NCBI GenBank assembly: GCA_028281925.1
Contig: JANQIX010000082.1
Location: 1-64,000, forward strand
Length of the DNA: 64,000 nucleotides
DNA from: Alphaproteobacteria bacterium
Lineage (GTDB): Bacteria; Pseudomonadota; Alphaproteobacteria; DSM-16000; Inquilinaceae
Direction of reading: 5' to 3'
Within the stretch, counting starts at the first letter, position 1. Each line of letters opens with the position of its first letter. Positions 9,261 to 13,046 of this stretch are shown here, in pieces. The notes beneath the pieces were generated by a model. It was not told where the DNA came from and did no database searches. It saw nothing but the letters and a program-made list of their open reading frames with translations. A program made the position numbers and the translations under genes.

Positions 9261-9914
9261 TCAGCTTTCGACCACGCGTCGACGGGTGCGCCACTGGGCC
9301 TGGTCTTCGCGGCAAGCGATGCCCGTCACGGTGGCCGGCACGTTGTCGAGCATGGATGTCGCAGTGAACTCTCTGCAGTACTGGCCCTGGGCCGTCTGGA
9401 AGGTGCGTACAACCGTAATGGTACCGCTGTTGCCGGTGTCATCGTTGTGCCAGTCGGCGGTGGTGCCGCTCAACTGGTTCTCCAGAAGATTGACCAGGGC
9501 CGCCATCTCCACCTGACGGTCCGTCTTGACCGCCTGGTGGATCTGCGGCTGCCCCTCGACGGTCGGCGCCGTAAGATGGACCATCGAGGCGCCGAAGATG
9601 ATCCCGGCAAGTCCGGCGGCCATCGCCATGTGCCAGGCGGCCCGCCGGGGAACGGAGGTTCGCTGGGGTGGGCGCTGCGCAGCCGGCAGCATGGTAGTTC
9701 GCGCGCCTTCGCCTTCTATCCTGAGCGGCGGCAACTGGTGATGCAGCATCGGCTCGAACGCCGCACGGACCAGGTCGGTGTCGGCCCTCAGCGCCCGGAC
9801 CATCCGGTCAAGACCGGCATCCGACTTCATCGCCTCTTCGACGGCAGCAGCCGCTTCGGCGTCGAGCTCGTCATCGACATAGGCGACGAGCGTCGCATCA
9901 TCAAAGCTGGTCAT
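9261..9914 (-). CDS. Anti-sigma factor with periplasmic surface-antigen-like domain
   Basis: A 217-residue membrane-spanning protein. Residues 1-55 are an acidic helical domain (DDATLVAYVDDELDAEAA) typical of ECF anti-sigma factors that lack a zinc HxxxCxxC motif. One membrane segment lies around 92-112 (MAMAAGLAGIIFGASMV). The periplasmic C-terminus carries WHNDDTGNSG, VRTF, YCREF and ACRED, a pattern like the RT0821/Lpp0805 (17-kDa surface antigen) domain. The lipoprotein at 11351 has the same domain. Its ATG shares one base with the stop of the ECF sigma gene (TGATG), so the two are translationally coupled. Likely role: hold the sigma factor at the membrane until an envelope signal arrives. 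Confidence 0.82.
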   Translation of the reverse strand: MTSFDDATLVAYVDDELDAEAAAAVEEAMKSDAGLDRMVRALRADTDLVRAAFEPMLHHQLPPLRIEGEGARTTMLPAAQRPPQRTSVPRRAAWHMAMAAGLAGIIFGASMVHLTAPTVEGQPQIHQAVKTDRQVEMAALVNLLENQLSGTTADWHNDDTGNSGTITVVRTFQTAQGQYCREFTATSMLDNVPATVTGIACREDQAQWRTRRRVVES

Positions 9915-10462
9915 CAGCAGCCTCCCGCGGCGATCATGCCGCCCGTTGTCTGATGGGCGTCGTCGTCCAACGCGGCTCGCAACGCGATGCGCGCGCGGGC
10001 CAGACGACTGGTGACCGTGCCCACCGATACCTCCAGAATGTCCGCCGCTTCGCGGTACGACAGCCCCTCAACCACAATCAGCAGCAGCGCCATGCGCTGG
10101 TCGTGCGGCAGCTTCTCGATCAGCCGGCGCACCAGCGCCAGTGTGATGCGCGATTCCGCCGTCCGTACCCCATCCTCTTCGGTCGCCACCAGCGACAGCG
10201 CCGGGCGGTGCTGTCTCCTGACATTGTCCGCCGACAGCCTGTTCAGCCACAAATTGTGGACGATCTTGAACAGCCAGCTGTCGAGCCTGGTCCCCTCTTG
10301 CCACTGCTCATGGCGGGTCATCGCCCGTTCAAGCGCAGCCTGCGCCAGATCGTCGGCTTCATCCGGCGACCGCACCAACACATAGGCAAATCTGTACACG
10401 CGAGGACGAAGCGCCACGATCTGGTCCCACAGGCGCCGGCTCGGATCTATTGTTTCACCCAT
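9914..10462 (-). CDS. ECF RNA polymerase sigma factor
   Basis: A 182-residue sigma-70 family protein of extracytoplasmic-function type. Region 2 is at about 20-85 (YRFAYVLVRSPDEADDLAQAALERA; SWLFKIVHNLW) and region 4 at about 115-170 (LPHDQRMALLLIVVEGLSYREAADIL; VGTVTSRLARAR). It lacks regions 1.1 and 3. The ATG at 10462 follows AAAGGCGGGG. It is co-transcribed with the anti-sigma gene. A promoter motif shared with the divergent glycine-rich gene suggests autoregulation. Confidence 0.92.
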   Translation of the reverse strand: MGETIDPSRRLWDQIVALRPRVYRFAYVLVRSPDEADDLAQAALERAMTRHEQWQEGTRLDSWLFKIVHNLWLNRLSADNVRRQHRPALSLVATEEDGVRTAESRITLALVRRLIEKLPHDQRMALLLIVVEGLSYREAADILEVSVGTVTSRLARARIALRAALDDDAHQTTGGMIAAGGC

Positions 10463-10523
10463 CCCCGCCTTTCTTTGGCCGGTGGTCCCATACTCTGGCC
10501 CCAGGATCACCACACACCCCACA

Positions 10524-10551
10524 GATAACAGGCGGGAGCGATCATACTTCC
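10524..10551 (-). promoter_or_regulatory. Candidate ECF-type promoter for the sigma/anti-sigma operon
   Basis: On the minus strand GGAAGTAT (10551-10544) lies upstream of CGCCTGTTATC (10534-10524). The same two elements in the same relative position occur in the opposite direction at 10622-10649. Spacing from GAAG to GTTATC is about 17 nt, as expected for an ECF -35/-10 pair. It lies about 60 bp upstream of the sigma start. Confidence 0.5.
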
Positions 10552-10621
10552 CGCACTGGCGCAAACAATCTCATGCGGCGTGCAAAATGGCATGGCGTAC
10601 GGACCTATTTGACGCCGACGC

Positions 10622-10649
10622 GAAAGAATCGGGGGACTCGCCTGTTATC
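10622..10649 (+). promoter_or_regulatory. Candidate ECF-type promoter for the glycine-rich gene
   Basis: GAAAGAAT (10622-10629) and CGCCTGTTATC (10639-10649) match the element pair facing the other way at 10524-10551; the 11-nt downstream element is identical. It lies about 80 bp upstream of the GTG start at 10728. Confidence 0.5.
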
Positions 10650-10727
10650 AGGTCGGGACTGATGAACAAAGCCGTCAACGGAACTCGATCGGGCCAACGA
10701 GATCGAGCCAACGACAAGGAGAATGCC

Positions 10728-11252
10728 GTGACCATACGGCGGAAGGGAAATCGGGTTGCCGTCTCGGCCGGCGTCAGCGTGGTTGCGCTGATGGCGGTCG
10801 TGGCTCCGGTGGCCGTGGATTTGGACGGTAACCATATCGCGCTTTCGCAGGCTCTCGCCGATGAGGGCGGAGGCGAGGGTGGCGGCGGCGGTGAAGGCGG
10901 TGGCGGTGGATCTGGCGGCGGCGAAGGCGGTGGCGGTGGATCCGGCGGTGGCGGCGGCGGTGCCGGCGGCGGCGGTGACAACGACGGCGGCGGTGACGGC
11001 GGAGGCGGGGGCCGCGGCGGCAATGACGACGATCGCGACGGTGTTGAAGCCCGCGGCGGCGGCCCGACCGGTGGGCCCAGTGCTGGATCGGGCCAGAATG
11101 CGGGAGGCGCATCGGGTCAGAGCGGTAGCGGTGCCGGCACAGGCGCAAGCGGTTCAGGAGATGGCTTTGGCCGCTCCGGCGGACTGGAGCAGGTCGGACC
11201 GGATCTCAGCCAGGATGAAGAAAGAGATATGATTTCAAGGGGTTGGGAGTGA
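10728..11252 (+). CDS. Glycine-rich exported protein
   Basis: A 174-residue protein with a hydrophobic N-terminal segment (VSAGVSVVALMAVVAPVAV, about 13-31) that may be a signal peptide or anchor. A low-complexity tract of Gly with Ser, Glu and Asp runs from about 48 to 150 (GGGEGGGGG, DDDRDG). It ends in an acidic tail (QDEERDMISRGWE). The GTG at 10728 is chosen because AAGGAG lies 6 nt upstream; an in-frame ATG at 10662 has no ribosome binding site. It appears to share its promoter type with the divergent ECF operon and may be a sigma target in the envelope. No known family was recognised. The proline-rich frame on the other strand is an artefact of the repeat. Confidence 0.65.
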   Translation: MTIRRKGNRVAVSAGVSVVALMAVVAPVAVDLDGNHIALSQALADEGGGEGGGGGEGGGGGSGGGEGGGGGSGGGGGGAGGGGDNDGGGDGGGGGRGGNDDDRDGVEARGGGPTGGPSAGSGQNAGGASGQSGSGAGTGASGSGDGFGRSGGLEQVGPDLSQDEERDMISRGWE

Positions 11253-11350
11253 GGAGATACAGTGCCGATCATCCGCGCAGTAGGCGTCCCGTATCCCAGG
11301 GCAGGCACGCGGAGCCGGTTTGCCGCAGTAGAGATAGCCGAGGTCCGGCG

Positions 11351-11734
11351 ATGGCGTCGCGCCCAGGATTGACTCTGCTGATGGTGGCGGTGACCGCGAT
11401 CGGGGCATGTGCATCCGCAGGAACTGTAGGAACGTCGGGAACGAACCGGTCGGCGGATCGTAGAGCACTTCCTCCGTTGATGACTGAGATAGACGTGCAG
11501 ATGGCAGAGCGGACGCTGCAGACGGCTCTGGAAGCCGAGGTCAGCGACACCAGCCGCAGATGGCACAACCCCCAATCTGGCGCAGCCGGGAGCGTAACCC
11601 CGGTCAGGACCTACCGGACGGTCAGCGGTGTCTTCTGTCGGGAATTTGAAGAGACGATCACGACCAATGGCAACACTGAGACCCGCCGCGATACCGCCTG
11701 CCGCGACCGGCAGGGCGTTTGGCAACCCCTTTAG
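11351..11734 (+). CDS. Lipoprotein with RT0821/Lpp0805-like surface domain
   Basis: A 127-residue lipoprotein: signal segment LTLLMVAVTAIGAC with the lipobox ending at Cys about residue 20. The C-terminal half (about 60-125) has RRWHNPQSGAAGSVTPVRTY, FCREFEE and ACRDRQGVW, the same pattern as the periplasmic part of the anti-sigma factor at 9261, including two cysteines placed alike. The ATG at 11351 has GAGG upstream. It sits between the glycine-rich gene and the pentapeptide gene on the same strand, probably one transcript. It may act as outer-membrane partner, decoy or signal for the sigma system. Confidence 0.75.
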   Translation: MASRPGLTLLMVAVTAIGACASAGTVGTSGTNRSADRRALPPLMTEIDVQMAERTLQTALEAEVSDTSRRWHNPQSGAAGSVTPVRTYRTVSGVFCREFEETITTNGNTETRRDTACRDRQGVWQPL

Positions 11735-11750: not shown

Positions 11751-13046
11751 ATGACGCAAGAGATCGCACGCCCCCCCAGCGACGAAGACTTGACGCGTCA
11801 TCGGTTGTGGACCGAGGGCGCCGAGGGCGGCGTGCGCGGCGATTTCTCCTTCGCCGACCTTAATGGCCGGGACCTGTCGCGCCGTGAACTGAGCGGCGCG
11901 AAGTTGACGGGTGCCCAGCTGGTGTCCGCCCGCCTGACGCATAGCCGGTTGAGGGGCTCGGACCTGTTCGGGGCCAATCTGAGGGATTGCGACCTTCAAG
12001 GCGCCGATCTGTCCGAGGCGGATTTGCGTGGGACGCTGCTCGCCGGTGCGCGGTTCCGGCATGCGCGGATGCGACGTGCCGATCTGCGAGCCGGCGCGCT
12101 GATGGACCGCAATGTCGACGATGCGGAGGTGCGCCACGGTCCCGCGGATGGGCGCGATGTCACCATCGTCGATGCCGATCTCGCCCATGCCAATCTGGCA
12201 GGAAGCCGCCTGTCTCACGCAACGGTCAGCGGCAGCGACCTGACGGGCGCACGGCTGCAGCGCATCGACCTGCGCGAGGCCGATCTTTCAGGCTGCGTTC
12301 TGCAGAACGCGGATTTGAGTAATGCCGATCTTCGCGGCGCCGATCTCTCCGGCGCGCGACTTATTGGCGCAATCCTCGACGATGCGAGCCTTGATGGCTG
12401 CTCGCTGCGGGATGCCGACCTGGTGGGCATCGATCGTTGGCGCTGCGATCTTTCCGGCGCCGACACCACGGGGGCACGCTTTGCCAAGCGCCTGGATACG
12501 ATGGCCAGCGAGCTCTTGCGCACGATCTTCGATCACGAGCGCTGGATCTCAAGTCTTGGCCGTAAGGGCATGCGCGCGGATCTGGAAGGCAGCGATCTGA
12601 GTGAGGTCGACTTGCGCCACGCCAACTTGGCCGGGGCGAACCTGCGCGGCGCCCAATTGACGGGTGCCATGCTGGATGCGGCCAATCTCATGCTGGCCGA
12701 CCTTTCCGGCGCCAATCTGGATGGGGCGAGCTTGCGCGGTACCGAACTGGCGGGCGCCAATCTGAGCTATGCCAGCCTGGTGGGCGCGGATCTGTCGGGT
12801 GCGCGGATGAACCCGGCGCCGTTGCGGACAGCGACGGGCAAGCCGACCGGCCGCTTCTGGTCAACGAACCTGCAGGGCGCGGGCCTCAGGCACGCCCACA
12901 TGCCGGATTGCTCGCTGGTCGGCGCCAATCTGACCAACTCGGACCTTTCCCTCGCGGACCTGCATGGTGCCGACCTGCGGGCTGCCAATCTTGCCGGGGC
13001 GCGGTTCAACGAAAACGATATGGCTCACGCGATCCGTCCGGCATAG
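11751..13046 (+). CDS. Pentapeptide-repeat protein with helical interruption
   Basis: A 431-residue protein made mostly of A(D/N)LxG-type pentapeptides (for example ADLSE ADLRG; ANLAG ANLRG AQLTG), expected to fold as a right-handed quadrilateral beta-helix. The repeats run from about 30 to 240 and 275 to 425, interrupted at about 244-271 by a non-repeat segment (KRLDTMASELLRTIFDHERW) that looks helical. No signal peptide is visible, so it is probably cytoplasmic. The ATG at 11751 follows GAGGG, 16 nt after the lipoprotein stop, so they are likely co-transcribed. The function of this class is usually unknown (some mimic DNA and protect gyrase); nothing here shows that role. Confidence 0.8.
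   Translation: MTQEIARPPSDEDLTRHRLWTEGAEGGVRGDFSFADLNGRDLSRRELSGAKLTGAQLVSARLTHSRLRGSDLFGANLRDCDLQGADLSEADLRGTLLAGARFRHARMRRADLRAGALMDRNVDDAEVRHGPADGRDVTIVDADLAHANLAGSRLSHATVSGSDLTGARLQRIDLREADLSGCVLQNADLSNADLRGADLSGARLIGAILDDASLDGCSLRDADLVGIDRWRCDLSGADTTGARFAKRLDTMASELLRTIFDHERWISSLGRKGMRADLEGSDLSEVDLRHANLAGANLRGAQLTGAMLDAANLMLADLSGANLDGASLRGTELAGANLSYASLVGADLSGARMNPAPLRTATGKPTGRFWSTNLQGAGLRHAHMPDCSLVGANLTNSDLSLADLHGADLRAANLAGARFNENDMAHAIRPA

What the first reader, a model, noticed from the sequence alone, without database searches (positions are those of the whole stretch)
9261..11734. Anti-sigma factor and neighbouring lipoprotein share one periplasmic domain
Both proteins carry WHN, VRT(F/Y), CREF and ACR in the same order and spacing, with two aligned cysteines. 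A free lipoprotein copy of the sensor domain beside its membrane-bound copy suggests a decoy, competitor or disulfide-based sensing scheme. I know of no described system built this way.
Basis: partly seen in the sequence, partly recalled or inferred. Interest (0 to 1): 0.65.

Follow-up and report, generated by a model that had tools for sequence, protein, structure and literature searches.

The report
Anti-sigma sensor with free domain twin
A membrane switch that holds back a gene-activating protein shares its outward-facing domain with a neighbouring lipoprotein, and a third protein made beside the lipoprotein carries a short tail that relatives of the switch carry themselves, which suggests that the tail plugs into both copies of the domain and lets the cell monitor a surface protein it exports.

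Summary
The anti-sigma factor (9261-9914 -) and the lipoprotein (about 11351-11734 +) both end in Pfam PF16998 (17kDa_Anti_2). They are the only two copies found in the 6.3 Mb genome, and the four motifs have identical spacing. The domain is a known family and both cysteines are invariant across 68 members, so they argue for a structural disulfide rather than a special redox sensor.

A survey of relatives shows two kinds of locus. In most, the anti-sigma carries a C-terminal tail (EEA-LI--GW) and sits beside an exported S8 protease; none has a free PF16998 gene nearby. In the window's kind there is no S8 protease, the anti-sigma lacks the tail, and a similar tail ends an exported Gly/Asp-rich protein encoded beside the lipoprotein. 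Six of seven such genera have the free PF16998 protein.

AlphaFold predicts that the tail is ordered and adds a strand to the PF16998 sheet in cis. ECF-type promoters face both operons.

Best guess: the exported protein's tail docks in trans on the anti-sigma domain and on the lipoprotein, giving feedback on assembly. Binding and its sign are untested. This is a new variant of envelope ECF signalling.

The parts
9261..9914 (-). Membrane anti-sigma factor (217 aa): cytoplasmic anti-sigma domain, one TM helix, periplasmic PF16998 domain, no C-terminal tail
   Evidence: ORF and translation; PF16998 42.0 bits and NF052375 antisigma 28.8 bits, sub-threshold; start overlaps the stop of the sigma gene
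9573..9641 (-). Predicted TM helix of the anti-sigma (residues about 92-114, AAWHMAMAAGLAGIIFGASMVHL)
   Evidence: read from sequence
9285..9539 (-). PF16998 domain of the anti-sigma
9914..10462 (-). ECF sigma factor (start ATG 10462)
   Evidence: Sigma70_r2 and Sigma70_r4_2 in Pfam; TIGR02937 83.9 bits, above cut-off
10524..10551 (-). Candidate ECF promoter of the sigma/anti-sigma operon, GGAAGTATGATCGCTCCCGCCTGTTATC
   Evidence: GGAA-N15..19-CTGTTATC has one match in the 6.3 Mb genome, this one; the same arrangement in relatives
10622..10648 (+). Candidate ECF promoter of the Gly-rich/lipoprotein operon, GAAAGAATCGGGGGACTCGCCTGTTAT (weaker -35)
   Evidence: GAA-N17-CTGTTAT has one match in the genome, this one; CGCCTGTTATC is shared with the opposite promoter
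10728..11252 (+). Exported Gly-rich low-complexity protein (GTG start after AAGGAG) ending in the tail
   Evidence: same position and make-up in L036, L079, L080, L083, L084, L195
11202..11249 (+). C-terminal tail DLSQDEERDMISRGWE, the counterpart of the anti-sigma C-terminus in S8-class relatives
11351..11734 (+). Lipoprotein (lipobox TAIGAC) carrying a free PF16998 domain; GTG 11249, overlapping the Gly-rich stop codon, is an alternative start
11483..11725 (+). PF16998 domain of the lipoprotein
   Evidence: AlphaFold model

Best explanation
The locus is an autoregulated ECF sigma/anti-sigma module that monitors an exported Gly-rich protein. The PF16998 domain is the receptor for a short C-terminal tail (strand plus amphipathic helix ending in GW). 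In most relatives the tail is part of the anti-sigma and folds back onto its own domain. In the window's lineage it sits on the exported Gly-rich protein, whose gene is followed by a lipoprotein with the same receptor domain. Inferred mechanism: the tail of newly exported Gly-rich protein docks on the anti-sigma domain at the inner membrane and keeps it locked against proteolysis, so the sigma stays off. The lipoprotein, probably in the outer membrane, takes the tail over. Shown by computation: shared domain, tail in cis or in trans, operon order, recurrence, matching divergent promoters. Predicted: tail docking in cis. Inferred: docking in trans, competition with the lipoprotein, proteolysis, and the sign of the response.
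For: The shared domain is real. The tail is C-terminal on the anti-sigma in most S8-class loci and on a low-complexity exported protein in the window, L036, L079, L080, L083, L084 and L195; a tail regex hits 8 of 5200 ORFs, all 8 in module genes, about 1 expected. AlphaFold2 of the cis-tail anti-sigma L044 gives the tail pLDDT 88-96, with strand 251-256 whose only possible partner in the model is the PF16998 sheet, after a poorly ordered linker. A free PF16998 gene lies nearby in 6 of 7 trans-tail/no-S8 genera and 0 of 26 S8 genera, Fisher p 6e-6. ECF-like promoter pairs occur in the divergent spacers: 5 matches against 0.04 in shuffles, and the window's sites are rare in the genome. The Gly-rich and lipoprotein genes abut or overlap in the window, L083, L084 and L195.
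Against: The cis docking rests on one model with 40 rows (13 with a cis tail), with no PAE values. The tail is short and its regex was made after seeing the data. L239 has a free PF16998 protein and a low-complexity protein but no tail that I could find, and in genus g2 the tail motif is internal and no free PF16998 gene lies nearby. Some S8-class anti-sigmas (L081, L129, L140-142) lack the tail. The sign of the signal is a guess.
Confidence: 0.4

Rival explanations
1. Same receptor and ligand, opposite sign: free tail in the periplasm is the inducer. It binds the anti-sigma domain and triggers its cleavage, as DegS senses OMP C-termini, while the lipoprotein sequesters tails and shuts the response off.
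For: The same facts on tail, domain and operon; both genes lie under the candidate sigma promoter, as expected for negative feedback by the lipoprotein.
Against: In cis-tail relatives the tail would be bound permanently, which fits an off state better than an induced state.
Confidence: 0.2
2. Plain decoy or co-sensor: both PF16998 domains bind the same envelope ligand (for example peptidoglycan, LPS or a misfolded protein); the Gly-rich protein is only a regulated output and its tail does something else, such as surface sorting.
For: PF16998 occurs widely in lipoproteins with no sigma factor nearby, so it may have a general envelope ligand.
Against: It does not explain why the tail is C-terminal on the anti-sigma where the exported protein lacks it, nor the predicted docking.
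Confidence: 0.2
3. Direct domain-domain contact between the anti-sigma and lipoprotein PF16998 domains, as STN domains pair in cell-surface signalling; the lipoprotein protects or presents the anti-sigma.
For: The CSS precedent: FoxR and FoxA contact each other through STN-like domains (PMC11637429).
Against: S8-class loci work without a free PF16998 gene nearby; no evidence of PF16998 dimers was sought or found.
Confidence: 0.12
4. Neutral by-product: the lipoprotein is an ordinary 17 kDa family member duplicated or inserted next to the anti-sigma, with no regulatory role.
For: PF16998 lipoproteins are common in the class.
Against: Recurrence in six genera of five families and none in 26 S8 genera; the window lipoprotein groups with that of L195, moderate support 81/86, and not with its own anti-sigma domain, so it is not a recent local copy; it lacks the Gly-zipper of the common lipoproteins.
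Confidence: 0.08

Closest known systems
S8-class ECF modules of the same anti-sigma family (found here; for example Paracoccus denitrificans PD1222 PDEN_RS27890 / RS22705 / RS25775)
   Same: ECF sigma, anti-sigma with TM and a PF16998-like periplasmic domain, neighbouring exported protein with a low-complexity region (usually divergent)
   Different: They have an S8 protease, most carry the tail on the anti-sigma, and none has a free PF16998 gene nearby; annotated only as S8 peptidase, sigma factor and hypothetical protein in P. denitrificans, whose tail lacks the final GW
Cell-surface signalling (FecIRA, FoxI/FoxR/FoxA, PupR)
   Same: The anti-sigma's C-terminal periplasmic domain resembles a domain of its outer-membrane partner, and the partner controls its proteolysis (PMC11637429)
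   Different: STN domain rather than PF16998; the partner is a TonB-dependent receptor rather than a small lipoprotein; no detached tail
RpoE/RseA/RseB/DegS
   Same: Inner-membrane anti-sigma read out by periplasmic factors and by C-terminal peptides of exported proteins (PMC8103513)
   Different: RseB is not homologous to the RseA domain (from memory); no PF16998
17 kDa surface antigen lipoproteins (RT0821/Lpp0805 family, PF16998)
   Same: Same domain and the same invariant cysteine pair
   Different: The usual members have a Gly-zipper segment and are not linked to sigma factors

Membership tests
PF16998 17kDa_Anti_2 | Profile match above the curated cut-off of 26.6 bits | tested here: met
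   P0001 42.0 bits, P0002 43.4 bits
PF16998 17kDa_Anti_2 | Invariant C-R ... C pattern | tested here: met
   C77, R78 and C98 invariant in 68 aligned members, including both window proteins
Canonical 17 kDa surface antigen lipoprotein | Gly-zipper segment (Rick_17kDa_Anti type) before PF16998 | tested here: not met
   No such match in P0002
Membrane-bound anti-sigma factor of an ECF sigma | Gene directly after an ECF sigma; N-terminal anti-sigma domain; one TM helix | tested here: met
   Position, hydrophobic segment and NF052375 28.8 bits, which is below that model's cut-off of 100
Zinc-binding anti-sigma (zf-HC2) | Match above cut-off and HxxxCxxC motif | tested here: not met
   17.9 bits against 22.2; the only two Cys of P0001 are in the periplasmic domain
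Membrane-bound anti-sigma factor of an ECF sigma | Binds and inhibits its sigma | not testable with these tools
   needs biochemistry
Cell-surface signalling (FecR type) | FecR/STN-type periplasmic domain | tested here: not met
   Only PF16998 and DUF5061 match the periplasmic part
S8-class module of this anti-sigma family | S8 protease gene adjacent | tested here: not met
   No S8 match within 6 kb in the window locus
S8-class module of this anti-sigma family | C-terminal tail on the anti-sigma | tested here: not met
   P0001 ends WRTRRRVVES; a similar tail is on the Gly-rich protein
RseA/RseB | RseB-family partner | tested here: not met
   P0002 has no RseB match in Pfam

The most novel reading that the evidence does not exclude
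A signalling scheme in which a small receptor domain and its tail ligand, joined in one anti-sigma protein in most relatives, have been split: the ligand became the C-terminus of an exported surface protein and the receptor was copied as an outer-membrane lipoprotein, so that the cell counts its own unassembled surface protein by competition between two copies of one domain.
Probability: 0.35. Interest if true: 0.78.

Novelty: new variant of a known kind. Interest (0 to 1): 0.62.

Why it matters
I found no description of PF16998-type anti-sigma factors, the S8-class modules or the tail in the literature held here. If the tail is the ligand, the locus gives a function to a very common but unexplained domain (the 17 kDa surface antigen domain), offers a large family of uncharacterised ECF systems a testable mechanism, and shows a natural experiment in which a built-in ligand was moved onto another protein. 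P. denitrificans PD1222, a cultured strain, holds a relative of the S8 class.

Tried and rejected
Disulfide-based sensing specific to this pair: rejected as a special feature, since both cysteines are invariant family-wide. Recent tandem duplication: not supported by the domain tree, though its resolution is low. Known fold for PF16998: no PDB sequence relative, best Foldseek E 0.12, best Z about 5; this is inconclusive and does not show a new fold. The ECF reclassification paper (10.1093/nar/gkaa1229) is not held, so the ECF group number is not given. Literature searches for 17 kDa antigen or PF16998 with anti-sigma, and for ECF with S8 peptidase, gave no description. One origin of the trans-tail class: the sigma tree forces at least 3 changes of the label, but L032 (genus g2) was mislabelled S in that tree, so the count is rough. 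Regulon search: GAA-N16-CTGTTAT gives four further sites in the genome, with control counts of similar size, so they were not pursued.

Full report
What is there. The window holds two divergent operons. On the minus strand lie an ECF sigma factor (9914-10462) and, overlapping it, a membrane anti-sigma factor (9261-9914). On the plus strand lie a Gly-rich exported protein (10728-11252) and a lipoprotein (11351-11734, or from GTG 11249). The anti-sigma's periplasmic part and the lipoprotein both match Pfam PF16998, 17kDa_Anti_2, at 42.0 and 43.4 bits against a cut-off of 26.6. They align at 38% identity over 81 residues, E 4e-16, with WHN, VRT, CREF and ACR at identical spacing. No third PF16998 match exists in the 6.3 Mb genome.

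What the domain is. PF16998 is a described family, annotated elsewhere as RT0821/Lpp0805 family surface protein. The two cysteines are invariant in 68 members. In the AlphaFold model (mean pLDDT 86, above 90 over most of the domain) the domain is a helix followed by an antiparallel sheet, and the cysteines lie on neighbouring strands at cross-strand register (the register is my arithmetic). I read this as a structural disulfide. No relative of known structure was found.

The wider family. Searches in relatives, the class and the phylum, followed by annotation of neighbourhoods, show that anti-sigma factors with this domain are widespread and fall into two kinds. In the S8 kind (26 genera in the sample) the neighbouring gene encodes a signal peptide, a low-complexity Asp/Gly/Asn-rich stretch and a subtilisin-like protease (Pfam Peptidase_S8 in the three tested). 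Most of these anti-sigmas end in a tail after the PF16998-like domain, with the pattern ..EEA.L...GW (alignment). None has a free PF16998 gene within 6 kb. P. denitrificans PD1222 has such a locus, with a tail that stops short of the GW. The window's own genome has a second system of this kind at G000:C36 (L133). In the other kind there is no S8 gene, the anti-sigma has no tail, and the neighbouring divergent gene encodes a signal peptide, a Gly/Asp-rich stretch and a C-terminal tail..DLSQDEERDMISRGWE in the window..NLSEEEEQDMISRGWQ in L083..ISPDEEAALVGNW in L079..NLSPAEEAQAIADGFSQ in L080..DLSSEAEAAAIGSGWSN in L195. In genus g2 a similar motif is internal and followed by a dockerin-like segment.

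Co-occurrence. Six of seven genera without S8 have a free PF16998 protein beside the module: the window genus (shown in the window; in G009 the two genes lie on different contigs that both end in this region), G017, G242, G278 with G056, G397, and G739. The S8 kind has it in 0 of 26; Fisher p 6e-6. One further locus, L235, has a cis tail but neither an S8 gene nor a free PF16998 gene and was left out of both counts. The genus lists were made by hand, genera are not fully independent, and the query was built from window-like members, so the p-value is indicative. With about 1.5 PF16998 genes per genome a chance neighbour within 6 kb would be expected in well under 1% of loci. In the domain tree the window lipoprotein groups with that of G397 rather than with its own anti-sigma (81/86), which fits old co-inheritance, though few columns were available. 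In the sigma tree the no-S8 kind is not one clade; at least three changes are forced (one g2 row, L032, carried the wrong label there).

Is the tail similarity real? A strict regex, written after seeing the sequences, hits 8 of 5200 open frames of 80 aa or more, all 8 in module genes, against 1.0 expected from shuffled C-termini. Two of the 8 are near-identical same-genus copies. In the AlphaFold model of the cis-tail anti-sigma L044 (40 rows) the tail is ordered (pLDDT 88-96), with a strand at 251-256 and a helix at 258-266, after a poorly ordered linker. The only other strands in the model belong to the PF16998 sheet, so the tail strand must pair with it (PAE not available, so this last step is inference).

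Regulation. In divergent spacers of the no-S8 kind, GGGAATA-like -35 boxes stand at about the spacing of ECF promoters from CGTT/TGTT-like -10 boxes: 5 matches in six spacers against 0.04 in block shuffles. In the window, CGCCTGTTATC occurs in front of both operons. GGAA-N15..19-CTGTTATC has one match in the genome, in front of the sigma gene. GAA-N17-CTGTTAT has one match, in front of the Gly-rich gene. GAA-N16-CTGTTAT has five matches, one of them in front of the sigma gene. Autoregulation of both operons is likely but not shown.

Mechanism. The simplest reading is that the PF16998 domain is a receptor for the tail: in cis in most relatives, in trans here. The lipoprotein then is a second receptor, translated with the tail protein, and would compete for or accept the tail at the outer membrane. 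I favour tail-bound as the off state, because a built-in tail would be bound by default, and because in cell-surface signalling the partner domain protects the anti-sigma from proteolysis (PMC11637429). The opposite sign is a live rival. Neither binding, nor localisation, nor proteolysis was tested.

Comparison. Cell-surface signalling is the closest working analogue: PupR and FoxR end in an STN-like domain that resembles the transducer's signalling domain. The window proteins are not members of that family: no FecR or STN match. They are PF16998 members and an ECF anti-sigma pair by position and domain; sigma binding was not tested. The novelty lies in the tail, its two placements, and the free receptor copy. 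My literature searches found no description, but the held library lacks most subscription papers and the main ECF classification paper.

Noticed in passing
G000:C36:5444-8166 (locus L133): The window's own genome holds a second module of the family, of the S8 kind: sigma, anti-sigma ending LLPDEEATLLEGGWN, and an exported low-complexity S8 protease.
   Followed up: partly
window 11751-13046 (+): A pentapeptide-repeat protein gene starts 16 bases after the lipoprotein and is conserved in that place in the same-genus genome (L036), but was not seen after the lipoprotein in L083 or L195; it may belong to the operon.
   Followed up: partly
L028 (JANQQD010000098.1): The only named same-genus record is titled Anaerolineae bacterium, although lipoproteins of the 17 kDa family and its relatives point to an alphaproteobacterium; the name is probably wrong.
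   Followed up: no
L029-L031 (genus g2): The tail motif (DDDTTAALIGSGW) is internal in a Gly/Asn-rich exported protein that ends in a dockerin-like DVDGNGVVDDRDL segment.
   Followed up: no
L079:6713-7675, L080:6786-7688, L239:6577-7611: In three lineages the free PF16998 domain is the C-terminus of a larger exported protein with a shared N-terminal part (GDxFxYxxGR...; weak DUF3108-like match in L080) encoded downstream of the anti-sigma.
   Followed up: partly
L241, L242, L243: S8-kind modules with a PF16998-like anti-sigma also occur in another class of the same phylum.
   Followed up: no
L144-L147: Anti-sigmas with the same N-terminal domain but an unrelated periplasmic domain and no S8 gene form a sister type.
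   Followed up: no
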